A program made the translations under genes and the position numbers. From the NCBI RefSeq assembly GCF_000428945.1, contig NZ_AUAX01000019.1, positions 124,001 to 188,000 of the forward strand: a stretch of 64,000 bases of DNA. Direction: 5' to 3'. Shown piece by piece: positions 3,658-62,450 of this stretch (within the stretch, counting starts at the first letter, position 1; each line of letters opens with the position of its first letter). Below the pieces are notes generated by a model. The model did no database searches. It worked only from the letters and a program-made list of their open reading frames with translations, and was not told the origin of the DNA. The stretch comes from Hamadaea tsunoensis DSM 44101 (lineage in GTDB: Bacteria > Actinomycetota > Actinomycetes > Mycobacteriales > Micromonosporaceae).

Positions 3658-3658
3658 G

Positions 3659-3729
3659 GGACGACGGCGAACGACGGAGCGAGGGGACGACGGCGAACGA
3701 CGGGTGAGGGGACGACGGCGAACGATGCG
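3659..3729. repeat. 26-bp tandem repeat, about 2.8 copies
   Basis: The unit GGACGACGGCGAACGACGG plus a variable 6-7 base tail (agcgagg or gtgagg) starts at 3659, 3685 and 3710. The last copy merges into the end of the dispersed repeat R at 3714-3817. The array begins within the stop region of the DUF2157 gene. Confidence 0.8.
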
Positions 3730-3817
3730 TCGCCCCACTCACCTGGCAGTGGAGGCCCCCCAGGGCCGGAACGGTCTCCCGCGCGAGGAGCGGAGGTGAG
3801 ATCGACGGACCCGGGAC
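3714..3817 (-). repeat. Dispersed repeat R, copy 1
   Basis: About 104 bp, nearly identical to the reverse complement of 50509-50612 (a handful of substitutions and one base of length difference). It contains internal complementary words (CTCACCT/AGGTGAG near the ends, GGCCC/GGGCC, a CTCCTCGCGCGGGAG dyad), so it can fold. It lies in the gap between the convergent DUF2157 and tex genes. No reading frame is conserved. Confidence 0.85.
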
Positions 3818-3849
3818 AAAGTCTTGAGAGATCTTGAATTTGATCGAGG

Positions 3850-6216
3850 TCAGGCGAGTCCAGCCCGGCGGAGGGCGTCGGCGAGGGCCGTGTCGGCGGG
3901 CGCCTGCTGACGCTGCGGCCGTCCCTGCTGCTGCGGCCGCCCACCACCCTGACGATTGCCACCGCCTTGCCGATTGCCGCCACCCTGCCGGTTGTTGCCA
4001 CGATCTTCCGGGGAGGACGGGGTGGCTTCGTCGTCCAAACGCAGAGTCAGGGAGATTCGCTTGCGCGGCACGTCCACGTCGATCACCTTGACCCGGACCA
4101 CGTCCCCGGACTTCACGACGTCGCGCGGGTCCTTGACGAAGGTCTTGGACATCGCCGACACGTGCACGAGCCCGTCCTGGTGTACGCCGATGTCGACGAA
4201 CGCCCCGAACGCCGCCACGTTGGTGACGACCCCTTCGAGCAGCATGCCGGGCAGGAGGTCGCCGATCTTCTCGACGCCCTCCTTGAAGGTGGCCGTCTGG
4301 AAGGCCGGGCGCGGGTCGCGGCCGGGCTTCTCCAGCTCCTTGAGGATGTCGGTGATGGTGGGCAGGCCGAAGGTCTCGTCCACGTAGTCCGTCGGCTTGA
4401 TCTTGCGCAGCGCGGTCGTGTTGCCGATGAGCTGCCCGATGTCGGTCTGCGCGCCGTCGAGGATCCGCCGCACCACCGGGTACGCCTCCGGGTGCACGCT
4501 GGACGAGTCCAGCGGGTCGTCGCCGCCCCGGATCCGCAGGAAGCCCGCGCACTGCTCGTACGCCTTCGGGCCCAGTCGCGGCACCTGCTGCAGGGCGCGG
4601 CGGTTGGTGAACGGGCCGGTGGCCTCGCGGTGCGCGACGATGTTCTTGGCCAGCGACTCGGTGATGCCCGAGACGCGGGTCAGCAGCGGTGCCGAGGCCG
4701 TGTTGACGTCGACGCCGACCGCGTTCACGCAGTCCTCGACGACCGCGTCGAGCGAGCGGGACAGCTTGCCCTCGGTCAGGTCGTGCTGGTACTGGCCGAC
4801 GCCGATGGACTTCGGGTCGATCTTCACCAGCTCGGCCAGCGGGTCCTGCAGCCGCCGGGCGATCGAGACGGCACCGCGCAGCGAGACGTCCATGTCCGGC
4901 AGTTCCGCGGACGCGTACGCGCTGGCGGAGTAGACGGAGGCGCCGGCCTCGGAGACCACGATCTTCGTGAGGTTCAGCTGCGGGAACATCTTGATCAGGT
5001 CGGCGGCCAGCCGGTCGGTCTCCCGGGAGGCCGTGCCGTTGCCGATGGCGATGAGCTCGACGGCGTGCACCTGGCACAGCCGGGCCAGGACCGCCAGCGA
5101 CTCGTCCCACTTGTTGTGCGGCACGTGCGGGTAGATCGTGTGGGTCGCGACGACCTTGCCGGTCGCGTCCACGACGGCGACCTTCACGCCGGTCCGGAAG
5201 CCGGGGTCGAGGCCCAGGGTCGCCCGGGTGCCGGCCGGCGCCGCGAGCAGCAGGTCGCGCAGGTTGGCCGCGAAGACGCGTACGGCTTCTTCCTCGGCCT
5301 GCTGCCAGAGCCGCATCCGCACGTCGATGCCGAGATGCGTGACGATCCGCGTACGCCACGCGTACCGGACGGTGTCGGACAGCCACTTGTCGGCCGGGCG
5401 GCCGCGGTCGGCGACCCCGACGCGGGCGGCGATGTGCTGCTCGAACCGCGTCGGCCCGATCTCGGGCGCGTCGGCCGGGTCCTCGGGCTGCACGACGACG
5501 TCGAGCATCTCCTCCTTCTCGCCGCGGAACATGGCGAGGATGCGGTGCGAGGGCAGCTTCGTGAACGGCTCGGCGAAGTCGAAGTAGTCGGCGAACTTCG
5601 CGCCGTCGGTCTCCTTGCCGGCCTTGACCTTCGAGGCGAGCCGGCCGCGGGCCCACACCTGCTCGCGCAGCTCGCCGATGACGTCGGCGTTCTCGGCGAA
5701 GCGCTCGATGAGGATCGCGCGGGCCCCGTCCAGGGCCGCCGCGACCTCGGTCACCGTCTCGGTGAGGTAGTCCGCCGCGGTGCTCTGCGGGTCCAGGTTC
5801 GGGTCGCCGATGAGCGCGTCGGCCAGCGGCTCCAGCCCGGCCTCGCGGGCGATCTGCGCCTTGGTCCGCCGCTTCGGCTTGTAGGGCAGGTAGATGTCCT
5901 CCAGGCGCGCCTTCGTGTCGGCGCCGAGGATCTGCGCCTTCAACGCGTCGTCCAGCTTGCCCTGGCTCGCGATCGACTCCAGGATGGCGGACCGCCGCTC
6001 CTCCATCTCCCGCAGGTAGCGCAGGCGCTCCTCCAGCGTACGCAGCTGGGCGTCGTCGAGCGCGCCGGTCACCTCCTTGCGGTACCGGGCGATGAACGGC
6101 ACGGTCGCGCCGCCGTCGAGCAGCTCGACCGCGGAGCTCACCTGCCCCTCGCGGACGCCGAGCTCCTCGGCGATGCGGGCGTTGATCGGCGGCAGGGCGG
6201 TCTCGGTGGAAGTCAC
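3850..6216 (-). CDS. tex: Tex family RNA-binding transcription accessory protein
   Basis: About 788 residues, collinear with the Tex/YqgF-HhH-S1 family. The N-terminal Tex domain reads RIAEELGVREGQVSSAVELLDGGATVPFIARYRKE. A YqgF-like core (LGLDPGFRTGVKVAVVD), helix-hairpin-helix repeats (ASAPLLTRVSGI...LQQVPRLGPKAYEQCAGFLRI) and an S1 RNA-binding domain at about 650-725 (GMLLEGVVTNVAAFGAFVDIGV) follow. Family knowledge: cytoplasmic RNA/DNA-binding protein affecting transcription elongation. Odd feature: a Gln/Gly/Arg-rich tail with three NRQGGG repeats. The GTG at 6216 is preferred: homologues begin near here and CAGAAT lies 6 bases before it. An ATG at 6270 is the alternative. Confidence 0.95.
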   Translation of the reverse strand: MTSTETALPPINARIAEELGVREGQVSSAVELLDGGATVPFIARYRKEVTGALDDAQLRTLEERLRYLREMEERRSAILESIASQGKLDDALKAQILGADTKARLEDIYLPYKPKRRTKAQIAREAGLEPLADALIGDPNLDPQSTAADYLTETVTEVAAALDGARAILIERFAENADVIGELREQVWARGRLASKVKAGKETDGAKFADYFDFAEPFTKLPSHRILAMFRGEKEEMLDVVVQPEDPADAPEIGPTRFEQHIAARVGVADRGRPADKWLSDTVRYAWRTRIVTHLGIDVRMRLWQQAEEEAVRVFAANLRDLLLAAPAGTRATLGLDPGFRTGVKVAVVDATGKVVATHTIYPHVPHNKWDESLAVLARLCQVHAVELIAIGNGTASRETDRLAADLIKMFPQLNLTKIVVSEAGASVYSASAYASAELPDMDVSLRGAVSIARRLQDPLAELVKIDPKSIGVGQYQHDLTEGKLSRSLDAVVEDCVNAVGVDVNTASAPLLTRVSGITESLAKNIVAHREATGPFTNRRALQQVPRLGPKAYEQCAGFLRIRGGDDPLDSSSVHPEAYPVVRRILDGAQTDIGQLIGNTTALRKIKPTDYVDETFGLPTITDILKELEKPGRDPRPAFQTATFKEGVEKIGDLLPGMLLEGVVTNVAAFGAFVDIGVHQDGLVHVSAMSKTFVKDPRDVVKSGDVVRVKVIDVDVPRKRISLTLRLDDEATPSSPEDRGNNRQGGGNRQGGGNRQGGGRPQQQGRPQRQQAPADTALADALRRAGLA

Positions 6217-6296
6217 CCGAGCATTCTGCCCGAAACATCGCGTGACATCCGGCAGGGGGATGCTCGGCATGGCGCCGCATCGATTACCTTCCGCTC

Positions 6297-9242: not shown

Positions 9243-9338
9243 CCCTCCGGACCCTCGCCCCTCCGCCGCCCTCCGGCCCTGCCGCGCTCCGGCCCTGCCG
9301 CGCTCCGGCCTCCGTTGCCCTGCCGACCCGAGGCTCTT

Positions 9339-9414
9339 CCGACGATCTTGCGCGAATGTCCGGGCTATTGGGGCAAAGCGGACAGAATCCGGGGCATTCG
9401 CGCAAGATCGTCGG
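9339..9414. repeat. Inverted repeat family A, copy 1
   Basis: A 76-bp element with outer arms of 20 perfectly paired bases (CCGACGATCTTGCGCGAATG and its complement) and a second internal pairing (TGTCCG/CGGACA). It lies between the convergent patatin and Gfo/Idh genes and recurs at 36154-36235 and 46561-46638. It would act as a strong hairpin in RNA read from either side. The remainder of the 9243-9624 gap is GC-rich with short repeated words and no gene. Confidence 0.9.
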
Positions 9415-9624
9415 CAAGTGGGTCGGCGGCTCGCGGAGGCGGCCGCAAGCGGGGCCGCCCCTTGCGGGCGGCGGGAAGCAAGATCACGCCGCCCAGCGGC
9501 ACGCCGCAGGCAAGCCGGGCGACCGGCAGACCGGGAGACCAGCGGACCGGTACGCAGGCGGATCGGCACGCCGGCACGCCGTGGTGACGCGCAGGATCGC
9601 CGGGAGTGGTGGTGTGAAGGCCCG

Positions 9625-10638: not shown

Positions 10639-10675
10639 GCCACCATGATTCCACCGCGATGGCTACGCTGCCTGC

Positions 10676-11528: not shown

Positions 11529-11833
11529 GATTCCTCACTGTCCAGCAGCTCGTGCAGGTTGCGCAGCTTCCTGCGCCAGAACTCCTCGTAGGGCGTCAGC
11601 CAGTCGCGTACCTCGGAAAGGGGTTCGGCAAGCAGCTCGTAGCGGCGGTGGCGGCCGTCGCGCGACTCACCGACCAGGCCGGCCTCGCGCAGCACCTTGA
11701 GGTGCTCGGACACGGACGGGCGGCTCATGTCGAAGCGCTCGGCGAGCGCGTTGACGGGTTGGGGCCCGGTGAGCAGGAGGCGCAGGATCTCCCGCCGGAC
11801 CGGGCTGGCCAGGGCCCCGAAGACGTCCGTCAT
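11525..11833 (-). CDS. ArsR-type winged-helix repressor
   Basis: 102 residues. A winged helix-turn-helix (GALASPVRREILRLLL...VNALAERFDMSRPSVSEHLKVL) with a basic wing (ESRDGRHRRYELL). No CXCXXC metal site is present, so it belongs to the non-metal ArsR group usually found with SRPBCC proteins. The ATG at 11833 overlaps the VOC stop by four bases and the stop overlaps the SRPBCC start by four, so all three are translationally coupled. It probably autoregulates through the 18-bp palindrome at 12209-12226; this is inference from position and symmetry. Confidence 0.92.
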   Translation of the reverse strand: MTDVFGALASPVRREILRLLLTGPQPVNALAERFDMSRPSVSEHLKVLREAGLVGESRDGRHRRYELLAEPLSEVRDWLTPYEEFWRRKLRNLHELLDSEES

Positions 11834-12195: not shown

Positions 12196-12202
12196 GCGAC
12201 CC

Positions 12203-12232: not shown

Positions 12233-12251
12233 ACTCCTCCGTCGAGGGGGA

Positions 12252-14309: not shown

Positions 14310-17300
14310 ATGTCGCGGCTGTTCCGCACCGCTCTGCGCGCCTTCATGGCGTCCGTCCTCGTCACCCCCGTCGCGGTGGTGGTCGCCGGACCACCGGCGC
14401 ACGCCGACCCGCCCGCCTGGGAGACGGCGATCGACCAGACCCTCGCCGACACCGCCGGCTGGGCGGACGGCCTGGCCAAGGTCGGCCGGCTGGGCCAGTC
14501 GCTGCCACTGCTGGGGGTCAGCCCCGGCAGCCTCGTGGACGCCGATCACCTGATCAAGAAGGCGTCCGACGCGATCGCCGCGAACGGGCTCGCCAACGCC
14601 GACCGCGACCTGGGCGGCGGCGTACACCTGACGAGCGCGGTGTCGGACGTGGACGGTGATCACCTCCTCGACCTCACCCTGACCGCGAAGCGCGAATCCG
14701 ACCCCGTCGACTTCACGGCGGGCGGCATCACCGCCGCGGCCGCCGTCCGGGTCACCGGCTGGGCGACCCTCCGGCTCAAGGTCCGCGCGGGCGCGTCCGG
14801 CGCCTACCTCGTCCGGGACGCCGACGCGCCGCGACTCGACATCGACGCCGTGGCGCATCTGCGTACCGACCTCGACCAGGCCCATGCCTCCGTGGGCATC
14901 CTGGAGGTCGCCCTGCAGGCGGGCGCGTCGTTGTCGGCCTCCACACATCTCGTCGTACGCGTGAACGACCCCAACGGTGACGGCCGGCTGGCGTTCGGCC
15001 AGGGCGGCGAGCTGAGCGCGACCGGCTCCCTGGCGGGTCTCGTGCAGGCCGGGTTCGACAGCAACGGCGGCGGCAAGATCTCCGATACGGAGACGGAGAC
15101 CGGTCCCGGCAAGGTGTCGGCGTCGCTGCACCTCGGCGCGGCCGCCACGGGCGCTCCGCTCGGCCTGCCCCCGCTGGACGCGACGGTCAACGTCACCTGG
15201 CCCGACATCACCGCCGGTACGCCCACAGTGGACACTCCGGGCCTCGACGGCACGATCGCCAAGTTCCGCAACATGAGCCCGCTCGATCTCGGGGCGGGCC
15301 TGGCGCAGCTGGCGACCCTGCTCTCGGGCATCCAGGCCAGCAAGGGCGCGGGCAACCTCGACCTGCCGTTCCTCAAGGGCACCTTCGCCGACGCGGTGAC
15401 GATCAACGAGAAGATCACGGCGTTCCTGAAGGCGAACACCTACCCGAAGACCGACGACCCGAACTTCCAGCCGGGCGTCGACGATCCGGGCCGGGCCGGG
15501 CAGCCGAAGTTCACCTCGATCCAGCAGCTGCTGAAGCTGCTCGCGGACGCCGGGCTGCTGCAGAACACGCCGCTGACCTTCGCCGGTGACAAGCTCGCCT
15601 TCACGCTGACCCTCGCCAAGAGCGCCACCGCGAACGTCGCTCTCGACGCGGGCGCGGCGCAGGTCTCCGGCAAGGGCGCGACGTTCACCCCGAGCGGCTT
15701 CACGTTGCCCGCCAACCGGTTCCAGCCCGGCGCGCTCAAGGGCCAGCGGGTCGTCGCGGGCACCTCGGCCGGCCAGATCACCGACAACACCGCGAACTCG
15801 GTCACGCTGGACGCCGAGTGGATCGGCGGCCGGCCCGCGGACGACAGCACCTGGGTGATCTCCAGCTCCGACGCGCACATCGGCGCTGTGCAGCTGGGCA
15901 GCATGTTCACCGCGACGACGGGCGACGACAAGAAGGTCGGCCTCAAGATCGGCAACGCCCAGTCCAGCCTCGCCCAGGTGAAGCCGTCGTACGCGGCGAG
16001 CGTCACGCTCGTGCTCGACCTGCGGGACGGGATCACCGACCCGGTCGCCAACGCCGACCGGGTGCTGCTGCGTACCGACCCGGCGACGCCCCTGTTCACG
16101 GCGGACTTCCCGATCACGTCGCAGATCGACTTCTACGGCAAGATCGGCTTCCTCAAGGTACGCGTGAACGGCTCGCTCGCGGTCGGCCCGGTGACCGGCG
16201 CGGCGCACATGCTGTCGATCAAGTTCAAGACCGCCCAGGACATCAGCCTCGGACAGCTGTTCGCGCAGTTGCAGACGAATCCGGCCGGCCTGTTCGACAT
16301 CACGTCGTCGGTACGCACGACCGGCACCGCCAAGATCAGCGTACCGGGGGACACGGGGATCCTGGGCGAGGGCGTGTCGGCGTCGTTCAGCTGGACCGCC
16401 GGCAGCGACCCGGTCGTCACCAAGACCAACCTCAGCGGCCTGTTCTCGCTGGACTTCAACCCGGACGACCCCAACGCGCTGTTCGGCTCGGTCGTCGAGG
16501 CGCTGCGGCTGGTCAACAAGGCGCTCGCCACGACCAGCGGCGGCAGCGGCCTCATGGACCAGAAGATCCCGCTGCTCAACAAGTCCCCGCGCGAGCTGAT
16601 GGGCAGCGACGAGAGCGGTGTCGGCGCCTCCGTCACGTACGCGGCCGACAACTCCGACTTCGACCTCCACGACGCGGCGCGTACCGGGGATGCGGTCTTC
16701 GCCGACAAGCTGAAGGACCGCACGGTCGTGATCGGCAGCAAGGCGTACCGCGTGCTGGCGGTGATGGACGGGCAGACGCTGAAGATCGCCGGAGCCGGTT
16801 CGCCGGTGCCCGCGGCCGGTTCCGCGTACGCCTTCCGCCCCGAGCTGGCCGAGGCGGTCGACCGCCTGCTGGCCAACCCGCCGGAGACCCTGCAGGACGC
16901 GCTGGACCTGGTGAACAACGCGATCGGTGCGGGCAGCGGCCTGTCGTTCGCGCTCGACCAGCGTGAGGGCGGCCCCTACCTGCGGATGGACCTGGCCTGG
17001 AAGCGGAACTTCCACACGGGCGCGCCGCTGAACTTCGCGTGGTCCGGCGCGGGCGACCTGGTGAGCCTCGACTCGTCGGGCGTCGTGGCGCTGGACGTGA
17101 CCGGTGACGCGCACCTCGGCCTGCTGCTGCCGCTGGCGCTGAACGCCGGCCCGCTGCTCGACCACGAGTCGTCGGCGAGCGTGACGGTGTCGGCCGGCGC
17201 GAGCCAGGTCGTGCTGGCCGCCCGGGTCGGGCCGCTGGCGCTGAGCCTGGGCAAGGACGGCGACTTCGCCGCGGTCCAGGGCAACCTGAAGTTCGGGCTG

Positions 17301-20300
17301 GGTACCACCGACGAGGACGACAAGCCGGTCCTCGACGGCCTGCTGGGCCTGACGCCGGAACTCACCACCGACGGGACGGACTGCGGCGGCGGGGTCGGCG
17401 GGGCGAGCGTACCGCTGTGCGCCCGGGCACCGGTGTTCCTCAACGACTGCGACCCGCCCGCGGGCACCAACGTGCTGTCGTTCCAGATCGACACCGACTT
17501 CCACACCACGTCGAGCCTGCCCGACCTCGGGCCCTGTCTGCAGAGCCTGGCGATCAAGCTGACCGACTTCAACGTCGGCATCGACGGATACCTGTCTAAA
17601 TTGGAGGAAGCGCTCCGGCTGGCGAGCTTCGACGGCAAGCTGCCGCTCGTCGGCGACGACCTCCAGCAGGGCCAGCACTTCATCCACCAGCTGCGCGACG
17701 ACATCAAGGCCGCCATCGGCCCGGTCCTCGCCAACGCCCCGGCCAACAGCGACGGCCTGACGACCGCGCTGCACGAGGCGCTGAAGAACATCGACCCCGG
17801 TCTGACCGTCTCGGTCGCCTGCGCCACCGGTGTCACCTCGCCGTGCGCGCTGACCGACGTGCAGTCCGTGCGCATCCAGCTCACCAAGGGCGAGGGCGAT
17901 CCGTCCGCGGCCGCCGGCTGCACGACCGACTGCCTCGCCACCAACGTGCCGCTGAACCTCGGCATCCCGGGCCTGTCGCTCAAGGCGGCGAAGGGCGCGC
18001 CGAACGGCGTGTCGGTGAAGCTCGGCTGGAAGCTGCACCTCGACATGGTGCTCGACCGGTCCGAGGGCTTCTACATCGCGACGCACGGGGCCGACAACCT
18101 TGCCCCCGAACTGCAGATCGGCGCCTCGTTCGACGCGGCCGACCTGGACGCGCAGCTGGCGTTCATCAACGTCAACGCGCACAAGAACACCAGCGCGCCG
18201 CTCGCGCGGGCGTACTTCGGGATCGACCTGAAGGGCGCGCCGGACGAGGAGAGCTGCTTCAACGGCACCGACGCGGCGCACTGCACGGCCGACGAGGACG
18301 CCCGGCTCACCCTCGCCGAGTTCGGCGACCTGGGCTCGCTCGTCAAGACCGACGTCGAGGCCAGCGTCAACATCGACTGGGCGCTGACCGCCAAGATCGA
18401 CCCCACCTCCGACATCGGCTCCGCGCTGCCCGGCGTGAGCGCCACGTTCCGGCTCAGCTGGGGCGTTTCCAACACCACGGGTACGCTGCAGGCCGGCGAC
18501 CTGCACATCGAGTTCACCGACATCGCGCTGGACGTCGGCTCGTTCTTCTCGAAGATCCTCAAGCCGGTGCTCGACAAGCTGAAGGCCGTCACCGGTCCGC
18601 TGCAGCCGGTCATCGACACCCTGTACGCGCCGATCCCCGTCCTGTCCGACCTCTCGCACGCGACCGGCGGACCCGACATCACGCTGGTGTGGCTGGCGAA
18701 ACAGTTCAGCACGCTGACCGGCGGCCCGAACCTCCAGTTCGTGGACACCATCCGCGCGGTGATCGACTTCATCAACCACATGCCGTCCTGCGGCTCGGGC
18801 GACTGCAAGATCCCGATCGGCCAGTTCTTCGTCAACCCGGCGAAGGCGCTCGACACCCTGGCGTCCCCGGCGTCGGCGGCGAGCCTGATCGACAACCCGC
18901 AGCCGAAGACCGCCGACGAGGTCAAGAACGCGATCGACGGCAAGACGACCGGCCGGAAGCTGTTCGGTACCGGCCTGGCCGCGAACAACGCCTCGAAGAT
19001 CGGCTTCTCGTTCCCGGTCTTCGACAACCCCGGCTCGCTGTTCGGCCTGCTCATGGGCCAGGACGTGGAGCTGATCGGGTTCGACAGCGGTCCGCTGGAG
19101 CTCGGGTTCAGCTGGCGGCAGTCGTTCGGCCCGGTGTACGCGCCGCCGCCGGTCCTGATCACGCTGTCGGGCAGTGCCTCGGTGACCGCCCGGTTCATCG
19201 CCGGCCTGGACACCAAGGGCATCCGCTCGGCGGTCGAGGCGATCCAGAACGGCGGCCCGGTACGCGCGATCGACATCCTCGACGGCCTCTACTTCAAGAC
19301 GGCCGACGCGAGCGGCAAGGCGGTCCCCGTCGTGACGCTGCGCGGCGAGATCGCGGCCGGCGCCGAGGTGAGCGTACTGATCGTGAAGGCGGGCATCGAA
19401 GGCGGAATCCGGCTCACCGTCGGGTTCAGCTGGAACGACCCGAACAACGACGGCAAGTTCCGGCTCAGCGAGTTCCTCCAGGCGCTGCTGACCAACCCGA
19501 TCTGCCTGTTCACCACCAGCGGCCAGCTGTCGGTGTTCCTGCGGGTCTACATCACGATCGACCTGTTCCTGTTCTCCAAGACGTGGAGCTTCACCCTGGT
19601 CAACGCGACCCTGCTGGACTTCCGCGCCCAACCGGACTGCTCGCCACCGCCACCGCAGCTCGGCGGCACCGTCGGTGACACGCTGGTCGTCTTCGCCGGC
19701 AAGTTCGGCGGGCAGTCCCAGCGTGGCGACAAGGTCTGGGACAACACGAAGGACACCTACAACGGCGACGTCATCAAGGTGTACGCGTTGCACTACGCGG
19801 ACTCCGGCCAGGACGGCGCGACCAACGGCTTCGACGGCTTCGCGGTCGAGGCGCTGGGCCGCAAGCAGGAGTTCCTCGACCCGAACCTGACCCGGGTGGT
19901 CGTCGACGGCCGCGACTACCACCTCGACGACGCGAGCAAGACGGCGATGTCGGTCGTGTTCCTCGGCGACGGCGACCCGGCCGGCGACGGCACCGCCACC
20001 TCGCCGTTCGACAAGACGGCCGTGGTGATGGGCTCCGACGGGGCCGACAACATCAAGACCGGCACCGGACCGTCCTTCGTGGACGGCGGCAAGGGCGACG
20101 ACACGATCGTGACCGGCGAGGCGGCCGGCGTCACCTCCTGGGTGACCGGCGGCGAGGGCAACGACTCGATCACCACCGGCGCCGGCGACGACGTGGTGGC
20201 CGGCGACACCGGGCTCGGCACGGCCCAGAAGGACCTGACGGTCCACGGCGAGAAGGGCGACAAGAGCCTCAGCGGCGTCATCGACTGGACGCAGCTGCAC

Positions 20301-23300
20301 GCGCCCGGCGACGACGCGACCGCGGGCACGGGTGCCGACACGCTGACCGTCGGACACGGCGCGAACAAGGTCTACGGCAACGGCGGTGACGACGTGATCG
20401 CCGCGCTGGTGGACGAGCGTACGCCGAACGGCGCGAACATCATGGTCGGCGGGGCCGGCGCGGACACCCTCAACGGCGGCAACGGCGACGACAGGATCTA
20501 CACCTACGACCAGAACCCGCCCGCCGATCCGGACCAGTCCGGGAGCGGTGACGAGAATCTGGTCAACAACGTCAACACCGGTGGCGGCCAGGACAAGGTC
20601 TACGGCGCGGCCGGGACCGACCTCGTGGTGTCGCACTCGGCCAACGGGCAGACCGGCGAGATCTACGGCTTCGGCGGGGACGACGTCCTGTCCGGCGGCT
20701 ACGGCACCGACAAGATCTTCGGCGGCCCCGGCGACGACTACGTGCTCGCCGAACCCTCGGCCGTCGGCCCGGCCGGCGCCTCGGACGGGTACGGCGCGGC
20801 GCGTACGGTGGTGCACCAGGATCTGCCGCCGCGCGTCGAATCCGAGCCGAAGCTCCTCGTCGGCGGGGCCGGGCACGACCACATCATCGGCGGCGACGGC
20901 GGAGCGACGGTCTTCGGCGACGCGTACCTGGTGAACGAGGCCTGTGTGGACGGTGCCTCGGCGACCGCCCAGCCGGCCGCGGCCGACCAGGGAGCCTCGG
21001 ACCTCATCCTCGGCGGCTCCGGCGTGGAGAAGGTCTCGGCGGGCGGTGGTGACGACCGCTCCGATCTGGGCGGCGGCAACGACATCGCCTGCGGCCAGCG
21101 CGGCGACGACACGCTCAACCTGGGCGACGGCGACGACAAGGCGTGGGGCGGCCTCGGCAAGGACCAGCTGCTCGGCGACTCCGGAACCGACACGCTCTAC
21201 GGCAACGAGGGCGACGACGGCCTCTACGGCGGCACCGGGATCGACACCATCGAGGGCGACGACGGCAGCGACTACGCCTTCGGCGGCGACGACGCCGACA
21301 CCATCTACGGCGGTACGCGTACCGCCGGGGCGGCCGACTCGACGGACTACCTGTTCGGCGAGGCCGGCAACGACTGGATCGTCGGCGACAACGGGGACAC
21401 GACGCCGTATCCGCTCGACCTGTCCGGGGCGACCCCGGCGGCCGGCGCGGGCGACGTGATCTCCGGCGGCTCCGGTGACGACCACGCGTACGGCGGGCTC
21501 GGCGACGACTCCGTCAAGGGCGACGAGGGCAACGACTACCTCGAAGGCAACAACGGTACGGACGTCGTGCACGGTGACGACGGCGACGACCAGCTCATCG
21601 GCGGTTCCTCGGAGTCGCTGAGCGGCACGGGGCGGCCGGACGCCACCGACTACCTGTACGGCGACGCCGGCAACGATCTGATCGCGGGTGACAACGCCCG
21701 GTTCACCACGGACGGCGTGACCCGGCTCGTGCAGGGGCGCGGCGTACCGCAGGTGCGGATCGAACTGCTCGATCTCGGGGCGGCACCGGCGGCCGGGACC
21801 AGCGCGGCCGACTACATCTCCGGCGACGCCGGTGACGACGTGCTGCTCGGCCAGGGCGGGCCGGACCGCGTACGCGGCGGGGCGGACAAGGACTACGCCG
21901 AGGGCGGCCCGGGCAGCGACTGGGTCGAGGGCGACACCGGCGACGACGACGTGGTGGGCGGTTCGTCCACTCCGGACGGTGTCGTGACCGTGCCGCCGGC
22001 CGGCCGGCCTGACACGGCCGACGCGCTCTTCGGCGGCCCCGGCAGCGACATCCTGCTCGGCGACAACGGTGCGATCCTGCGCCCGCTCGCCGGGGACACG
22101 CCCGCCGCGGTCACCAACCGGCTCGCGGCCGACGGGACGGCCTTCCCGCCGCGTGTCGTCACCTTCCTCGACCGGGGTACGCCGGACGCCGCCAAGTTCG
22201 GCGACGACCGGATCAGCGGCGGCGACGGGGTCGACCTCGCGTACGGGCAGGACGGGTCGGACGCGATCACGGGTGACGGCGGCGCAGACTACCTGGAAGG
22301 CAACGGCGGCAACGACATCCTGCGCGGTGACCTGCCGCTCGGCGCGGCCGGGCACGCCGCCGTGACCCCGATCGCGGCCCAGCCGTGGCCGGGTGCCGCG
22401 GGCACGGCCGCCGACCTGGTCGGCCCCGGTACGCCGGACGGCCAGGACGACCTCATCGGCGGCAGTTCGGCCCAGGGCTTCCGGGACGGCGCCGATGTGA
22501 TCGAGGGCGACGGCGGTGACGACGTGCTGCTCGGCGACGACGGCTCGCTCGTCCGCACGGTCGTGAACGGGAAGGAGAAGGTCTACTCCGAGCGCTACCC
22601 GACCGGGGCCGACCTGACCAACGCCACGGTGGCGCGTACGCACGACCCGGCGCTGCCCGGCCCGTCGACCCGGTTCTGCTCGGCGACCAGCCTGTTCACC
22701 TGCGAGCCGGCGGGCTCGTTCGGCAACGACACGCTCTACGGCGACGGTGGCAACGACGGTGTCTGGGGCCAGGACGGTGACGACACCGTCTACGGCAACG
22801 ACGGGAACGACGACCTGTTCGGCGAGCTCGGCGCGGACACGATCTACGGCGGGGCCGGCGAGGACGCGATCGTCGGTGACCGCGGCGGCGTCGTGAACCA
22901 GTACGTCAACGCCGACGACAACGCCGCGCTCGGGTTCTCGATGGACCTGAACCAGGTGCCGAAGGAGCACTACACCGGGTTCGCCGTCGGCACCTACGAC
23001 CGGCGGGTGGACCTGCTCCACGACACCGACGGCGACCAGTGGATCGGCGGGCCGGCCAGCCCGGCGATGCCGCACGACGGGTACACCACCGGCGACAGCG
23101 ACCTGATCCGGGGCGGGTCCGGCAACGACAACATCCACGCGGGCTGGGGCAACGACATCGCCAACGGTGACAGCGGCGGTGACCAGATCTTCGGGGCGCA
23201 GGGCTCGGACGTGCTGTGGGGCGGCAAGGGCTGCGACCCGGTCCTCGACGCGGCCAACCCGGACTGCCTGAAGAACGGGGTGTTCGACCCGACCGCCCGG

Positions 23301-25910: not shown

Positions 25911-25976
25911 CACCGCCCCTTGTGCCCTTTGCTCCAGCGGGGTCGCGGCCTTGACCCCGCGGGGCCTACCGCGGGG

Positions 25977-26050
25977 CTTGATCCCGCGGGGGCTTGATCC
26001 CGCGGGGGCTTGATCCCGCGGGGCCTTGATCCCGCGGGGGCTTGATCCCG
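25977..26050. repeat. 16-bp tandem repeat, about 4.6 copies
   Basis: Unit CTTGATCCCGCGGGGG, starting at 25977, 25993, 26009, 26025 and 26041. Each unit contains the palindrome CCCGCGGG. The last partial copy is the outer edge of hairpin B1. A degenerate earlier copy (CTTGACCCCGCGGGGC) lies at about 25950. Confidence 0.9.
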
Positions 26051-26119
26051 TTTGGATCAGGGAAATCACCCGAATCATGGCCCAAGATTCGGGTGAAAAA
26101 CCTGATCCAAACGGGATCA
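26043..26119. repeat. Inverted repeat family B, copy 1
   Basis: 77 bp. Outer arms of 19 perfectly paired bases (TGATCCCGTTTGGATCAGG and complement) and inner arms ACCCGAATC/GATTCGGGT. It lies between the convergent M14 and alpha/beta hydrolase genes. Related copies are at 52149-52233 and 50946-51034, and a split copy at 33681/34466. Confidence 0.9.
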
Positions 26120-26240
26120 TCGGGCCGCCGGGCCCGCCGGCGCAGGGCGCGGGGCCGTGGGGAGCGGGGCCGTGGGGAGCGGGGCGTGGGGCGGCGCCGT
26201 AGTCGCGACTGTCCGTCTTGCGGGAATCCACCTGTTGAGC

Positions 26241-26313
26241 GATCTTGACCGATGTGGCGAAACCAACGTCAACCCGGCCAGGAAGCGTTGATTTCGCCAC
26301 ATCCGTCAAGATC
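26241..26313. repeat. Inverted repeat G (single copy in window)
   Basis: 73 bp with 28-base arms and two mismatches (GATCTTGAC-GATGTGGCGAAA against its complement). It lies in the same convergent gap as B1. No other copy was found in the window. The rest of 26120-26461 holds no supportable gene. Confidence 0.8.
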
Positions 26314-26461
26314 AAAACCGCAACCGGCCCGCCCACCGTGCCCGATCGCACCGAATCCCGAGGTCTCCTCCGACATCGCAGGCGCCGCGACGCGTACTCC
26401 CGGATGGGCAAGGACAACGACGGCGCCGCAGCGAGCCCGAACGCTCAAAAGGGCTGAACAC

Positions 26462-33669: not shown

Positions 33670-33680
33670 CCGTCGGGACT

Positions 33681-33726
33681 CCAAGACCGGGTTTGGATCA
33701 CGGTTGTCACCCGAAATCATGGGCTC
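33681..33726 (+). repeat. Left half of a split family B inverted repeat
   Basis: The word CCAAGACCGGGTTTGGATC and the following ACCCGAAATCATGGGCTC are complementary to 34422-34466. In other B elements the halves are about 10-30 bases apart; here 695 bases separate them. Confidence 0.75.
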
Positions 33727-33743
33727 TACAGCCGCGCCGCTGC

Positions 33744-33861
33744 CATGATCGAGGCGGGTTTCTGGTCGCTCCGTGAAGATCAAGGCGGAGTTCTGGTCGT
33801 CAGGACAGCCGGAACGCCACCACGATCTTCGCCGCACAACCGGAAACCCACCTCGATCATG
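33744..33861. repeat. Inverted repeat family E, full palindrome
   Basis: 118 bp, imperfect arms of about 50 bases (CATGATCGAGGCGGGTTTCTGG against its near complement at the right end), with an internal direct repeat on the left side. A half copy occurs at 61976-62036. It sits inside the split B element. Confidence 0.8.
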
Positions 33862-34140
33862 CAAGCGGTTGCGCGTTTCCTGGTTTGTCGGGAGCTTGAT
33901 CTGGACGGATCGTCACCGTCCATACCGGACAGTCGCGACATGGTCGGAGCCTGACCAGGCTGTCGGCGCCGGTCCGGCGCCATGGCTCCCCGATCCCAAC
34001 GGGGATCACTGAAGTCGGCGGCCCCTGCTCACACCGGGTGCGTCAACGTTCATGCATCGTGGGTTGGAAATGCCACCTCACCCGTCAGCGATCAAGAATG
34101 GCGACCGCGATCCGCCGGGCGGAGGATCTCGTCGGCGCCG

Positions 34141-34300
34141 CCGACGCGACCGCCTTGATCAAGTACCGCTATTACGGCACCGCGACACCGATCTCCTTGA
34201 TCAAGTACCGTCATTACGGCGGGAGAGCGCTTCCCTGCCGAATAGGCGGTACTTGATCAAGGCCATCCGCCTTGGACTGCCGAAATAGCGGTAAGTAATC
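34141..34300 (-). repeat. Repeat family C, copy 1 (reverse orientation)
   Basis: About 160 bp matching the reverse complement of 50763-50926 and 62171-62333. It contains four units of the type ACCGCtATTaCGGCA, two in each orientation, three of them flanked by TTGATCAAG. Short open frames across it are not conserved between copies. The 33862-34140 stretch has no gene that I can support. Confidence 0.9.
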
Positions 34301-34347
34301 ATCTCGCGGCGGGCCGCTCGGCGGGGCCGCTCGTTCACGGCGTGGCA

Positions 34348-34395
34348 GCTTGATCAAGTTTCCGGCTCCTACAGAAGACCGGCCGATTCCGCAGA
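34348..34395 (-). repeat. Repeat family D, copy 1 (reverse, partial)
   Basis: Matches the reverse complement of the core of D at 50647-50735 (CTTGATCAAGTT at one side, AAGACCGGCCGATTCCGCAG at the other). It is next to C1 in the same relative order as the other two D-C pairs. Confidence 0.75.
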
Positions 34396-34421
34396 TTCAG
34401 GGCACTATACGAGCGTTCATG

Positions 34422-34466
34422 GAGCCCAAGATTCAGGTGCCGACCGCGATCCAAACCCGATCTTGG
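34422..34466 (-). repeat. Right half of the split family B inverted repeat
   Basis: GAGCCCAAGATTCAGGTG...GATCCAAACCCGATCTTGG is complementary to 33681-33726. It ends 16 bases before the stop codon of the MFS gene, where a hairpin terminator would be expected. Confidence 0.75.
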
Positions 34467-34481
34467 GCACGGCTGCGGTGC

Positions 34482-36104: not shown

Positions 36105-36111
36105 CCCCGCC

Positions 36112-36161
36112 ATTCCGACCCCCCGATTCCGACCCCCCGATTCCGACCCCCCGATTCCGAC
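36112..36161. repeat. 14-bp tandem repeat, about 3.6 copies
   Basis: Unit ATTCCGACCCCCCG at 36112, 36126, 36140 and a partial copy at 36154. The last partial copy ATTCCGAC is the outer edge of hairpin A2. Confidence 0.9.
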
Positions 36162-36235
36162 GATCTTGCGCGAATGTCCGGGCATTACGGGCATTCGCCG
36201 CGAAATTCGAGGCATTCGCGCAAGATCGTCGGAAT
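36154..36235. repeat. Inverted repeat family A, copy 2
   Basis: 82 bp. Outer arms of 23 paired bases beginning ATTCCGACGATCTTGCGCG. It lies between the convergent GNAT and aldo/keto reductase genes; the outer arms match copy 1 and the loop differs. Confidence 0.9.
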
Positions 36236-36275
36236 GACGGGGCGGGGGAACCGCCCGGGGGACCGCCGGGGCGGG

Positions 36276-46448: not shown

Positions 46449-46459
46449 CCGTTCTTCTG

Positions 46460-46500
46460 GGTCCCGCTCGGTGGTTCTCCGCCGGGCGGGACCTTTCCTT
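46460..46500 (+). terminator. Terminator of the cellulase gene
   Basis: GGTCCCGC pairs with GCGGGACC, with a further inner CGGTGG/CCGCCG pairing, followed by TTTCCTT. Located 11 bases after the stop codon. This is the clearest intrinsic terminator with a T-tail in the window. Confidence 0.85.
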
Positions 46501-46517
46501 GGGAAGTCCTCAAGTTC

Positions 46518-46541
46518 ATTCATGTCCCGGGTTCGTCGATC
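46518..46541 (+). repeat. Fragment of repeat R
   Basis: 24 bases identical to the left edge of repeat R at 50504-50527 (starting ATTCATGTCCCGGG). The rest of R is missing here. Confidence 0.7.
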
Positions 46542-46560
46542 CGACTTGTACCCGGAGCTG

Positions 46561-46638
46561 CTCGGCGATCTTGCACGAATGTCCGGGCATTTCGGGTACT
46601 CCGGACGAAACTCGAGACATTCGCGCAAGATCGCCGAG
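46561..46638. repeat. Inverted repeat family A, copy 3
   Basis: 78 bp. Outer arms of 23 bases with one mismatch (CTCGGCGATCTTGC against its complement), inner TCCGG/CCGGA. Relative to copies 1 and 2 the outer arms carry a change at the same pair on both sides, so pairing is kept. The 46639-47097 stretch has short words shared with other gaps (for example GTCGCGACTGTCCG at about 46697, 26204 and, inverted, 33926) but no gene. Confidence 0.9.
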
Positions 46639-47097
46639 CGCCGCTGAAGGTCCCTGAGGATCGGGGATGCCGTTCACCTCGGCCTGTTGGCCTTTGTCGC
46701 GACTGTCCGATATGGGGGCCTGGCGGCGGCGGGCGGCAGTCGGCGGTGGGCGGCGGGGTTGATCAAGAAATCGGTGATCCCGGTTCGCCTGCTGGAAGAT
46801 CGTTCCCGCATCATGGGAAGCACTCGATGGCCGGGCGGCGTCAGCGTAATCCACTGCGGCTGAACGGTAAACCCGGCTCCTCGTCCAAGATCCAAAGCGC
46901 CTCAGGTGCGGGATGCCGGCTCTGGCTGCGTCCCAGCCGCAATGGATCGAGAAAGCGGGCCGGAAATGGCATCTCAGCTGCGAATGATCACCAAGGCCGG
47001 CCGACCTTCGTCTCCACATCGGATAGTCGGGGAACGGTGCAGCGCCCCTCCGGCCTGCGATCCATGGCTTCGTGACGGGGCGGCGGCCCTGACGGGT

Positions 47098-50200: not shown

Positions 50201-50251
50201 TCCGCCGCCCGCCGCCGCGCGGCGGGGGTGAGGGTGAGCTGGGCCACTGGG

Positions 50252-50277
50252 GGAATCGTTGCGCGTGGTCTACGGTT
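50252..50277 (+). promoter_or_regulatory. SigR/SigH-like promoter motif GGAAT-N18-GTT
   Basis: GGAAT at 50252-50256 and GTT at 50275-50277 with exactly 18 bases between, matching the consensus of thiol-oxidative-stress sigma factors SigR/SigH of Actinobacteria. It points into the gap downstream of the acVLRF1 gene, which has no annotated gene in that direction. Confidence 0.4.
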
Positions 50278-50283
50278 GGACAG

Positions 50284-50443
50284 GTCGGTGCCGCGACAGT
50301 GTCCCCGGGCCTCAACTATCGCCTTTACGGAATACCGTTCGGCTGGAGCCGTATCGTGCCACGCGCCGAGAGGCGACCGGCGGCACCGCCCTCGTGAACG
50401 GGCCTCGACCTTCTGCTGAGCGGCAGAGGCGGGGCCCGTTTTC
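50284..50443 (+). ncRNA. Candidate small RNA ending in a hairpin terminator
   Basis: From the predicted start after the SigR-like motif to the hairpin at 50397-50443 (ACGGGCC pairing GGCCCGT, inner CTTCTGC/GGCAGAGG, followed by TTTTCG) is about 160 bases. No conserved protein frame is evident. It could instead be a 3' UTR and terminator of the acVLRF1 operon. The terminator is well supported, the RNA is not. Confidence 0.35.
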
Positions 50444-50508
50444 GTCTTCCCCAGCTCACGACGTTCGAGGGCAGATCAAATTCAAGATCAAATTTAAGAT
50501 CAAATTCA

Positions 50509-50612
50509 TGTCCCGGGTTCGTCGATCTCACCTCCGCTCCTCGCGCGGGAGACCGTTCCGGCCCTGGGGGCCTCCACTGCCAGGTGAGTGGGGCGAGGCA
50601 TCGTTCGCCGCC
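50509..50612 (+). repeat. Dispersed repeat R, copy 2
   Basis: Near-identical inverted copy of 3714-3817, 46.8 kb away, in the convergent gap between acVLRF1 and NUDIX genes. Just before it, three A/T-rich AGATCAAATT words (50473-50506) are tandemly repeated. Confidence 0.85.
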
Positions 50613-50646
50613 GCCCACTCCCTCTTTCGATTCGCAAGATCTCCAT

Positions 50647-50735
50647 TGCTTGATCAAGTTTCCTGGGGCTGCGGAATCGGCCGGTTTTCTGCAGGATTTG
50701 GGAACTTGACCATGCTTTCTCGTCGTGATCGAGCG
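50647..50735 (+). repeat. Repeat family D, copy 2
   Basis: About 89 bp with nested arms: TTGATCAAGTT/GGGAACTTGACCA and CTGCGGAATCGG/CCGGTTTTCTGCAG. Matches 62068-62156 along its length. It is followed directly by C2. Confidence 0.8.
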
Positions 50736-50762
50736 GCCCCTGTCGCGCGGACCGTCACGGGG

Positions 50763-50926
50763 TGATCGTTTGCCACTATTACGGCAGGCCATGGCGAATG
50801 GCCTTGATCAAGTACCGCCTATTCGGCAGGGAAGCGCTCTCCCGCCGTAATGACGGTATTTGATCAAGGAGATCGGCGTCGTGGTGCCGTAATAGCGGTA
50901 TTTGATCAAGACGAATCGCGTCGGCG
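50763..50926 (+). repeat. Repeat family C, copy 2
   Basis: About 164 bp with four ACCGC(n)ATTnCGGCA-like units, two forward and two reverse, and three TTGATCAAG-like words. High identity with C1 (reverse complement) and C3. Confidence 0.9.
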
Positions 50927-50945
50927 ACCAACGCGTCCACCGGAT

Positions 50946-51034
50946 CCAAGACCGCGCCTACGTGGTCGCGGCCCACACGGGCCGGCGGAGAGCCCAAGAT
51001 TCGGGTGATTTCCCTGATCCAAGCGCGATCTTGG
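50946..51034. repeat. Inverted repeat family B, copy 3 (decayed left arm)
   Basis: Left CCAAGACCGCGC and right GCGCGATCTTGG are complementary with one mismatch. The inner right half (GCCCAAGATTCGGGTG) matches B1, the inner left half has diverged. It ends 8 bases before the NUDIX stop codon. Confidence 0.65.
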
Positions 51035-51041
51035 TGGGTGG

Positions 51042-52148: not shown

Positions 52149-52233
52149 CCCAAGATCCCGCTTGGATCAGGGAAACCACCCGAATCTTGGGCCAAGATTA
52201 CGTGCGAAACCCTGATCCAAGCGGGATCTTGGG
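52149..52233. repeat. Inverted repeat family B, copy 2
   Basis: 85 bp with 24 perfectly paired bases in each outer arm (starts CCCAAGATCCCGCTTGG, ends in its complement). Unlike all other copies it lies between divergent genes. Compared with B1 the fifth base of the CCCG(T/C)TTGG word changes with its partner on the other arm. Confidence 0.9.
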
Positions 52234-55004: not shown

Positions 55005-55007
55005 CTC

Positions 55008-55604: not shown

Positions 55605-55687
55605 GCAGGGTATTCGAGTGGTTTTCGCGTTCGCAGTCAATGGTCCCTACGGCTGTTCTGTCGGGGGCTGGTTCTAGGGTCGTCCTC

Positions 55688-56353: not shown

Positions 56354-56369
56354 GCTGGACTCCTAAACT

Positions 56370-60292: not shown

Positions 60293-60309
60293 CCGGTAGT
60301 TTCATCTAC

Positions 60310-60921: not shown

Positions 60922-61934
60922 GCCTCGACCTGGTCGCCCTCGGCGAGGTGATGCTCCGCCTCGACCCCGGTGACGCCCGCGTACGCACGGCGCGCAGCTT
61001 CGCCGTCTGGGAGGGCGGCGGGGAGTACAACGTCGCCCGGGCGCTGCGCCGCTGCTTCGGGCTGTCGACGGGCATCGTGACGGCGTTGGCGGACAACGAG
61101 GTCGGCCGGCTCGTCGAGGACCTGATCCTCGCCGGCGGCGTCGACACCTCCCTGATCCGCTGGCTGCCCTACGACGGGATCGGCCGCACCGTCCGCAATG
61201 GACTCAACTTCGTCGAGCGCGGGTTCGGCGTACGCGCCCCGCTCGGGGTCTCCGACCGGGGCAACACGGCCGTCGCGCAGCTGAAGCCGGCCGACGTCGA
61301 CTTCGGCGCGCTGTTCGCCACCGGCGTCGGCGGCCTGCACACCGGTGGCATCCTCGCCGGCCTCTCGGACACGACCCCCGACCTCATCGAGACCGCCCTG
61401 TACGCGGCCCGCGAGCACGGGGTGCGTACCTCCTACGACCTCAACTACCGGCCGAGTCTGTGGCACGGCCGGGGCGGGCTCACCGCGGCCCAGGCCGTCA
61501 ACCGGCGGCTGCTGCGCGGCGTGGACGTCGTGTTCGGCGTACCGACGGCCGACCCGGTCGACGTCGACTCGTTCGCCGCGCACGCCGAGCGGCTGGCCGC
61601 CGAGTTCCCGGACCTGCGGGTGGTGGCGACCACGCTGCGGCACGCGTACTCCGCGAACTGCCACGACTGGGGGGCGATCGCCTGGCGGGACGGCGAGGTC
61701 GCGGTGGCGACCCACCGCGAGCGCCTGGCCGTGCTCGACCGGATCGGCGGCGGCGACGGATTCGCCTCGGGCTTCCTCTACGGTCTGCACCAAGGGCTGG
61801 ACCTTCTGTCCTGTGTGGAGTACGGGGCGGCGCACGGCGCGCTCGCCATGACAACCCCCGGCGACACGTCGATGGCGACCCTGGCCGAGGTGCGGGCGCT
61901 GGCGGAATCCGGCACGGGCGACGTCATCCGCTGA
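60918..61934 (+). CDS. kdgK: PfkB-family kinase, probable 2-keto-3-deoxygluconate kinase
   Basis: 338 residues, PfkB fold: GGGEYNVARALRR near the start, RTSYDLNYRPSLW, and the catalytic Asp in DRIGGGDGFASGFLYG. Coupling to the aldolase strongly suggests phosphorylation of 2-keto-3-deoxygluconate (KDG) to KDPG, which the aldolase then cleaves. These two genes complete the lower branch of uronate or semi-phosphorylative Entner-Doudoroff breakdown; the upstream enzymes are not in the window. GTG start. Confidence 0.9.
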   Translation: MSLDLVALGEVMLRLDPGDARVRTARSFAVWEGGGEYNVARALRRCFGLSTGIVTALADNEVGRLVEDLILAGGVDTSLIRWLPYDGIGRTVRNGLNFVERGFGVRAPLGVSDRGNTAVAQLKPADVDFGALFATGVGGLHTGGILAGLSDTTPDLIETALYAAREHGVRTSYDLNYRPSLWHGRGGLTAAQAVNRRLLRGVDVVFGVPTADPVDVDSFAAHAERLAAEFPDLRVVATTLRHAYSANCHDWGAIAWRDGEVAVATHRERLAVLDRIGGGDGFASGFLYGLHQGLDLLSCVEYGAAHGALAMTTPGDTSMATLAEVRALAESGTGDVIR

Positions 61935-61975
61935 TCAGACGTGTGTCAACGAGCCTCCGACCAACCACGATCATC

Positions 61976-62036
61976 AGGACAGCTCGGAAAACCACCACGA
62001 TCTTCGCCCCGCGACCCAATACCGGACCTCGATCCA
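61976..62036 (+). repeat. Half copy of repeat E
   Basis: Shares AGGACAGC...CCACCACGATCTTCGCC with 33810-33861. The left arm present at 33744 is mostly absent here. Confidence 0.65.
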
Positions 62037-62067
62037 GTGCCCGGATTCTGCAGTAGTGGATCTCCAG

Positions 62068-62156
62068 AGCTTGATCAAGTTCCTTGGAGCTGCAGAATCG
62101 GCCCGTTCTCTGCAGGAATCGGGAACTTGATCATGCTTTCATGTCGTGATCAAGTG
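62068..62156 (+). repeat. Repeat family D, copy 3
   Basis: Matches 50647-50735 with the same nested arms (TTGATCAAGTT/GGGAACTTGATCA and CTGCAGAATCGG/CTCTGCAG). Confidence 0.8.
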
Positions 62157-62170
62157 ACCCTCACCTCGAG

Positions 62171-62333
62171 TGATCGCGTACCGCCGATTCGGCAGTCCAC
62201 GGCAGAACTCCTTGATCAAGTACCGTCTATTCGGCAAGGGAGCGCTCTCCCGCCGCAATGACGGCACTCGATCATGGAAATCGGTGTCGCGGTGCCGTAA
62301 TGGCGGTACTCGATCAAGGCAATCGCGTCGGCG
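62171..62333 (+). repeat. Repeat family C, copy 3
   Basis: Same order of units as C2, with substitutions at several unit ends (for example ACCGTCTATTCGGCA, TGCCGTAATGGCGGT). The sequence from here to 62450 shows no gene. Confidence 0.85.
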
Positions 62334-62450
62334 ATGCGGGACTATTATTTCTCCATCTCCAGCCCATATTGCACGAACATGGACGCGTCCGGTGCGACCA
62401 GGGCCGCCGATTTCGCCTGCGCGCCGGACGGTGCGTGAGCAGGAGAGGTT

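What the first reader, a model, noticed from the sequence alone, without database searches (positions are those of the whole stretch)
3658..62450. Every convergent gap over 100 bp carries dispersed palindromic repeats
The eight gaps of more than 100 bp between genes that face each other (3658-3849, 9243-9624, 25911-26461, 33670-34481, 36105-36275, 46449-47097, 50201-51041, 61935-62450) all hold imperfect-palindrome elements, most in two or more copies. Short overlapping convergent pairs have no room. Only B2 (52149-52233) lies between divergent genes. Nearly all hairpin families (A, B, C, D, E, G) carry GATC in their arms (CAAGATC or TTGATCAAG). Together they suggest a targeted or selected set of bidirectional terminators, REP/BIME-like elements or nucleoid-protein sites.
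Basis: seen in the sequence. Interest (0 to 1): 0.75.

Follow-up and report, generated by a model that had tools for sequence, protein, structure and literature searches.

The report
GATC-marked hairpin repeats behind genes
This actinobacterium carries hundreds of copies of several long hairpin-forming DNA repeats that sit mostly just after the ends of genes; close relatives have different hairpin families of the same design in the same kinds of places, much like the known REP/BIME repeats of other bacteria but without a sign of their usual enzyme.

Summary
In 1.64 Mb of the same genome it is a strong bias, not a rule: 57 of 105 convergent, 54 of 265 tandem and 8 of 181 divergent gaps over 100 bp carry a family member; 5 of 258 family loci lie in called genes. 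In 44 of 56 occupied tandem gaps the element is nearer the upstream stop. A arm has 410 sites and B 287 genome-wide. GATC is the most over-represented palindromic tetramer in the arms. Families are lineage-specific: A is at background in three congeners, which share family r1, absent here. No RAYT gene (0 of 4), no clear target duplication, no U-tract. Best reading: REP/BIME-like, probably once-mobile repeats tolerated or used as transcript-end hairpins at gene 3' ends. 'Bidirectional terminator' is partly supported, but U-tails are missing and A/B arms do not covary. New variant of a known kind.

The parts
3703..3846 (-). family H element (profile match 3724-3818) in convergent gap 3658-3849
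   Evidence: repeated interval of cluster CL2, 15 intervals; H 35 loci in 1.64 Mb
9339..9413 (-). family A palindrome in convergent gap 9243-9624
   Evidence: fold z -9.5
26042..26120 (-). family B palindrome in convergent gap 25911-26461
   Evidence: fold z -10.7
26197..26216 (+). R motif (4 mismatches or fewer) between B and D
26238..26313 (+). palindrome D, single copy in the 1.64 Mb sample
   Evidence: fold z -9.6
33679..33724 (-). half of a split B element at the start of convergent gap 33670-34481
33744..33860 (-). palindrome E inside the mosaic block
   Evidence: fold z -9.0
33925..33944 (-). R motif
34015..34094 (+). partial K module
34156..34261 (-). family C palindromic module (a second partial C match at 34132-34179)
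34348..34407 (-). family F module
34417..34467 (+). other half of the split B element
36158..36231 (-). family A palindrome in convergent gap 36105-36275
   Evidence: fold z -6.9
46563..46636 (+). family A palindrome in convergent gap 46449-47097
   Evidence: fold z -5.6
46691..46710 (+). R motif after the A element
46782..47013 (.). overlapping G and K mosaic modules
50480..50622 (+). family H element (profile match 50509-50602) in convergent gap 50201-51041
50648..50715 (+). family F module
50803..50908 (+). family C palindromic module
50992..51033 (+). right half of a B element next to the mosaic block
52151..52231 (-). family B palindrome, the only one in a divergent gap of the window
   Evidence: fold z -10.5
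61969..62034 (-). partial second copy of E in convergent gap 61935-62450 (weak, 19.5 bits)
62069..62136 (+). family F palindrome
   Evidence: fold z -4.8
62211..62316 (+). family C palindromic module (a second partial C match at 62293-62342)

Best explanation
They are lineage-specific families of REP/BIME-like repeats: palindromes of about 60-110 bp, alone or combined in mosaic blocks, that copied themselves (or were copied) through the genome. They persist mainly just downstream of stop codons because there they do not break promoters and can form hairpins at transcript ends, at some genes taking the place of an ordinary terminator hairpin. The conserved GATC is inferred to be part of the recognition site of the unknown copying enzyme. 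Shown: dispersion, 3'-end placement, GATC enrichment, lineage specificity, presence/absence differences between relatives. Inferred: mobility, the enzyme, and any transcript-end function.
For: High copy: A arm 410 sites (up to 2 mismatches) and B inner arm 287 sites (up to 3) genome-wide, reversed-pattern controls 0. Placement: repeated DNA covers 26.7% of convergent, 12.3% of tandem, 5.3% of divergent gap bases and 0.11% of genes; of 188 blocks in gaps 94 are convergent against 52.1 +- 6.1 by chance and 14 divergent against 48.1 +- 6.2; in 44 of 56 occupied tandem gaps the element is nearer the upstream stop, median 40 bp after it. Relative G003 (400 kb, looser depth of 2): other families, same placement (22.6% convergent, 5.6% tandem, 1.8% divergent, 0.02% genes). 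Turnover: A near control level in G001-G003; a strict r1 pattern 0 here and 30, 61, 87 there. Presence/absence: of 29 orthologous convergent gaps 4 hold a GATC palindrome in both, 7 only here (the relative's gap is 11-26 bp in 4 of these), 4 only in the relative. GATC: enriched in arms in both genomes; unchanged in both arms of 35 of 36 A and 35 of 35 B, 28 of 28 r1 and 19 of 20 r2. Transcript-end role: ordinary hairpins in 4 of 23 comparable convergent gaps, 10.2 expected; G-U 74 vs A-C 45 in 126 tandem palindromes of both genomes, p 0.01.
Against: No clear target-site duplication; no Y1/RAYT gene in 4 of 4 genomes of the genus; no autonomous element with matching A or B ends seen in 1.64 of 9.48 Mb; paralogous empty sites only for one or two A copies and not base-exact. 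A and B arms show no covariation beyond shuffles. No U-tract; A/B have even fewer T after the hairpin than random gap positions. Hairpin replacement is not seen in tandem gaps (11 of 34, 11.8 expected) nor significant in the relative. The G-U excess is not significant in this genome alone. GATC in so many families may be common descent rather than recognition.
Confidence: 0.6

Rival explanations
1. They are functional transcript-end hairpins (U-less terminators or 3' protective stems) kept by selection at each gene, whose sequences are homogenised within each lineage by recombination (concerted evolution).
For: Tandem orthologous gaps are co-occupied by palindromes of different families more often than chance: 4 of 8 against 1 of 156, p 1e-5; with at least 40 bp of room 4 of 6 against 0 of 42. 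Arms of the relative's r1 covary: 402 of 448 concordant cells against 349.4 +- 7.3 shuffled; r2 345 of 418 against 306.6 +- 9.4. G-U excess. In Streptomyces clavuligerus 353 of 535 structured 3' ends lack a U-rich tract (PMC8269248, passages).
Against: Convergent gaps show no significant co-occupancy (4 of 11 vs 4 of 18, p 0.43). A/B do not covary. In four convergent pairs the relative has no such hairpin and only 11-26 bp between stops. Covariation of r1 could also come from hairpin-templated mutation or from a few subfamilies.
Confidence: 0.2
2. They are binding sites for a chromosome-organising protein or gyrase that relieves supercoils between convergent genes; GATCASGG would be part of the site.
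For: In the relative GATC and the later GG are unchanged in both arms of 28 of 28 r1 and 19 of 19 r2 elements that could be anchored on GATC; convergent enrichment.
Against: Families A, C and K lack the GATCASGG core (sequence); the rest of the sequence turns over between congeners. No protein was tested.
Confidence: 0.12
3. Neutral debris: old palindromic insertions remain where selection does not remove them, without any function; the 3' bias is only avoidance of genes and promoters.
For: Depletion in divergent gaps and genes explains much of the pattern; no U-tract; no A/B covariation.
Against: The sense-strand G-U excess and the scarcity of ordinary hairpins where A/B sit in convergent gaps suggest a transcript-level role at some sites.
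Confidence: 0.08

Closest known systems
REP sequences tagged GTAG or CGTC (Di Nocera et al. 2013, PMC3733652; abstract, passages, sections 6 and 15 and part 1 of section 17 read)
   Same: High-copy extragenic palindromes, mostly between convergent and unidirectional genes and next to the 3' end; some families species-specific; the CGTC class has no dedicated transposase.
   Different: Here units are about 60-110 bp instead of 20-40, show no unpaired GTAG/CGTC tag, carry GATC in paired arms, and no PF01797 gene was found.
BIME (bacterial interspersed mosaic elements of enterobacteria; passages of PMC2965389, otherwise recalled)
   Same: Mosaics of palindromic units in both orientations joined by other short motifs; BIMEs are cited there as bidirectional terminators.
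   Different: Modules A, C, F, G, K, H and the R motif were not compared with E. coli palindromic units by any search; R precedes modules at set distances.
U-lacking structured 3' ends / I-shaped terminators of Streptomyces (PMC8269248, passages)
   Same: GC-rich stem without a U-rich tract after it.
   Different: Not described as dispersed repeat families in the passages seen; here no RNA data exist.
3'-end stem-loops of prokaryotes (PMC1590033, passages)
   Same: Stem-loops favour convergent gaps and the first 50 bp after a stop codon.
   Different: [quoted passage not shown] here 127 of 185 long gap palindromes carry GATC, and A and B alone have 104 full-length copies in the same 1.64 Mb.

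Membership tests
REP (GTAG/CGTC superfamilies) | high-copy extragenic palindrome at gene 3' ends | tested here: met
REP (GTAG/CGTC superfamilies) | unit of 20-40 bp | tested here: not met
   A 74 bp, B 81 bp, r1 about 60 bp
REP (GTAG/CGTC superfamilies) | unpaired GTAG or CGTC motif at one end | tested here: not met
   by eye on the 46 A and 66 B matches printed, not by a scan; the CGTCG end of A pairs with CGACG
REP with RAYT | Y1 (PF01797) tyrosine transposase in the genome | tested here: not met
   0 of 4 genomes of the genus (one only 87% complete); the control rings in 5 of 14 known genomes
BIME | mosaic of inverted palindromic units with other fixed motifs | tested here: met
   25 gaps holding R are listed, most with several modules in order; three run H> R> modules R< H<
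BIME | gyrase, IHF or Pol I binding | not testable with these tools
   no binding data
intrinsic terminator | stable GC-rich hairpin close after the stop codon | tested here: met
intrinsic terminator | U-tract after the hairpin | tested here: not met
   at least 4 T in 9 nt on either strand: 1 of 46 A, 1 of 58 B; ordinary hairpins 49 of 164; random gap positions 46 of 437
MITE | target-site duplication | tested here: not met
   flank identity at 2-8 bp close to mispaired flanks (A at or below; B at most 0.34 vs 0.27 at 4 bp; highest K 0.48 vs 0.31 at 3 bp; no significance computed)
MITE | autonomous partner with the same ends | tested here: inconclusive
   no pair of orphan A or B arms in 1.64 of 9.48 Mb; C has some pairs, not followed

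The most novel reading that the evidence does not exclude
An undescribed, non-RAYT copying system that recognises GATC in hairpin DNA drives successive waves of palindromic repeats in this genus; each wave reoccupies the same gene 3' ends, so that a selfish repeat keeps renewing the host's transcript-end hairpins.
Probability: 0.25. Interest if true: 0.8.

Novelty: new variant of a known kind. Interest (0 to 1): 0.5.

Why it matters
PMC3733652 places REPs predominantly in Proteobacteria. The paper listings showed me no description for Micromonosporaceae; these are open-licence papers only, several listings were cut, and few papers were opened (in the one Micromonospora paper opened, PMC5765111, the three 'palindromic repeat' passages are about CRISPR). 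A genus whose members carry different hairpin families of one design, some in the same orthologous gaps and most with one conserved tetramer, offers a natural experiment on how such repeats spread without a RAYT and whether hosts use them to end transcripts.

Tried and rejected
Insertion into pre-existing terminator stems: flanks of A and B are C-rich on the left and G-rich on the right, but left flanks pair with their own right flank hardly better than with others (A at 12 nt z -2.1, at 24 nt -0.3; B 1.2 and 0.0); not supported.

Target-site duplication: no clear one. RAYT: none. Known RNA families: 0 gathering-threshold hits in the window. Exact A arm in viral contigs: 0. Plasmids: no match for 50480-51041; phages: none for 33670-34481 (one block each).

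Covariation in A and B: fewer double changes than shuffles for A (14 vs 34.0, 36 distinct 74-mers) and about equal for B (20 vs 22.6, 35 distinct 81-mers); I had expected support and did not get it.

Autonomous element: orphan arms of A (6) and B (3) form no pairs; C has 52 orphan arms with some pairs, not followed. Joined-flank search: 26 of 104 A/B queries matched elsewhere, but by reading them only A at C1:453489 and, more weakly, C1:148742, both beside K modules, look real; the rest look like GC-rich chance or related mosaic.

GATC palindromes as a family-wide trait: 4 of 37 gap palindromes in 16 tiles of nine other genera of the family and 1 of 10 in 4 tiles of the order (score 12 or more, not 14; the two G016 tiles had poor gene calls), so not family-wide in this sample. 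G013 (140 kb) has a shared AAGGGGCCCTTCC core in 3 of 14 gap palindromes: too few to conclude.

One search crashed half-way; its printed gap table is used, the rest was rerun. Rows dropped: conserved gene pairs whose orientation differed; gaps under 60 or over 1200 bp; A/B copies not of the full length 74 or 81 and duplicates; one of 20 r2 elements that could not be anchored on two spaced GATC (that tally is anchored on GATC). Tile L083 was fetched but not used in the 1.64 Mb sample.
Full report
What was checked. The window lies in a 9.48 Mb genome of 68 contigs. Of five named relatives of one window protein the closest is a Hamadaea metagenome bin at 76% identity, so the genus is probably Hamadaea or near it in Micromonosporaceae; this is inference from one protein, the family name being recalled. 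No annotation was available; I wrote a codon-model gene caller, so all gap classes rest on it.

Observation. In 1.64 Mb (C1 whole, parts of C2, C3, C4, C17) the bias persists but is not absolute: 57 of 105 convergent, 54 of 265 tandem, 8 of 181 divergent gaps over 100 bp. Chance placement by gap length gives 52.1 +- 6.1 convergent blocks (94 seen), 87.8 +- 6.9 tandem (80 seen), 48.1 +- 6.2 divergent (14 seen). In tandem gaps 44 of 56 lie nearer the upstream stop, median 40 bp after it and 109 bp before the next start. Of 258 family loci 5 lie in called genes, some at gene edges where the call may be wrong.

Anatomy. Profile searches in 1.64 Mb gave A 46, B 66, H 35, C 19, F 11, G 45, K 33, D 1, E 2 loci; G and K overlap each other. 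A is a 74-bp palindrome CGACGATCTTGCGCGAATG...; B is an 81-bp double-stem palindrome CAAGATCCCGTTTGGATCAGG.... Larger blocks are ordered mosaics: a motif R (CCTTTGTCGCGACTGTCCGA; 51 sites at up to 4 mismatches, 45 in convergent or tandem gaps) often precedes A, C or G/K modules, with R-C-R spacing of 197-199 bp in four cases; three blocks run H> R> modules R< H<. Of ten partial B matches eight break between model positions 31 and 55 of 81, near the apex, beside mosaic blocks, for example C1:202041 and C2:207476; window 33670-34481 is a further split B: either mosaics entered B at its apex or B is a shortened mosaic.

GATC. Among 185 gap palindromes (score 14 or more) 127 have GATC in the left arm, 15.9 expected from shuffled arms; after dropping arms that share a 9-mer, 16 of 64 against 3.9. 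In the relative G003 59 of 86 (5.7), and 16 of 40 (2.3). GATC is first in all four tallies, but it does not stand quite alone: in the relative CATG has 22 of 86 (6.2) and 9 of 40 (2.0), and here CCGG has 28 of 64 (14.4) among non-redundant arms. The surviving arms could still be distant homologues, so GATC may be inherited rather than converged upon. GATC is unchanged in both arms of 35 of 36 A and 35 of 35 B. In the relative's r1 family GATC and the later GG are unchanged in 28 of 28 elements while neighbours covary in both arms. In 16 tiles of other genera only 4 of 37 gap palindromes have GATC.

Relatives. B-like DNA is found in 3 of 3 congeners and 0 of 57 other genomes of family and order at that sensitivity. 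Arms of A, B, C, H, R and K have 0 hits in 0.8 Mb of G003, and arms of r1 and r2 have 0 in 1.64 Mb of G000; genome-wide, A is near control level in G001-G003 (6, 3, 5 sites against 2, 4, 0 at up to 3 mismatches) and a strict r1 pattern gives 0 in G000 and 30, 61, 87 in G001-G003. G003's own families sit in the same gap classes. Of 236 conserved gene pairs, for GATC palindromes, convergent: 4 both, 7 here only, 4 relative only, 14 neither (p 0.43); tandem: 4, 4, 1, 155 (p 1e-5); divergent: 0, 2, 0, 41. Where only this genome has an element the relative's convergent gap is 11, 12, 14, 26, 64, 78 and 122 bp.

Function. For: in convergent gaps of 60-1200 bp an ordinary hairpin occurs in 10 of 61 with an element and 39 of 70 without; matched for free length, in 4 of 23 gaps with A, B or other single GATC palindromes against 10.2 expected (z -3.0), 19 further such gaps having no room; in mosaic gaps the lean is z -1.6 (convergent) and -2.0 (tandem). 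G-U exceeds A-C on the sense strand of 126 tandem palindromes of both genomes, 74 vs 45 (p 0.01), elements 36 vs 17; by genome 45 vs 33 (p 0.21) here and 29 vs 12 (p 0.01) in the relative; in convergent gaps, where no strand is privileged, 66 vs 55 (p 0.36) (all long palindromes, not only GATC ones). Against: no replacement in tandem A/B gaps (11 of 34, 11.8 expected) nor significantly in the relative (4 of 10, 5.3 expected; 4 of 18, 5.4 expected); no U-tract; no covariation of A/B. In Streptomyces clavuligerus most structured 3' ends lack U-rich tracts (PMC8269248, passages), so absence of U does not exclude termination.

Comparison. Placement matches REP repeats as described in PMC3733652 (abstract, passages and sections read), and 3' stem-loops in general (PMC1590033, passages). 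Membership in the GTAG/CGTC REP families fails on length, tag and RAYT; 'works like REP/BIME' stands. I therefore call it a new variant of a known kind.

Noticed in passing
window 33670-34481; C1:202041-202695 and C2:207476-207970 of the same genome: Mosaic blocks sit between two halves of a B palindrome; in the C1 and C2 cases both halves keep part of the apex as a direct repeat of roughly 12-19 bp (by eye).
   Followed up: partly
own genome, 25 gaps listed: A 20-bp motif R often precedes palindromic modules at set distances, and three blocks are large inverted repeats (H> R> ... R< H<), cassette-like.
   Followed up: partly
window 25977-26050: CTTGATCCCG recurs five times at 16-bp spacing, the fifth being the start of the B element.
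   Followed up: no
L137-L138, L151-L155 (G013): Another genus of the family shows a shared AAGGGGCCCTTCC core in 3 of 14 gap palindromes, hinting at its own repeated 3' hairpins.
   Followed up: partly
L131 (G004), two places: The same long perfect-arm palindrome AGTCATACGTCAGGTACCTCAACC... occurs twice within 20 kb, once in a convergent and once in a tandem gap.
   Followed up: no
window 14310-23894 (+): One open frame of 3194 codons, by far the longest called gene of the window; function not looked up.
   Followed up: no
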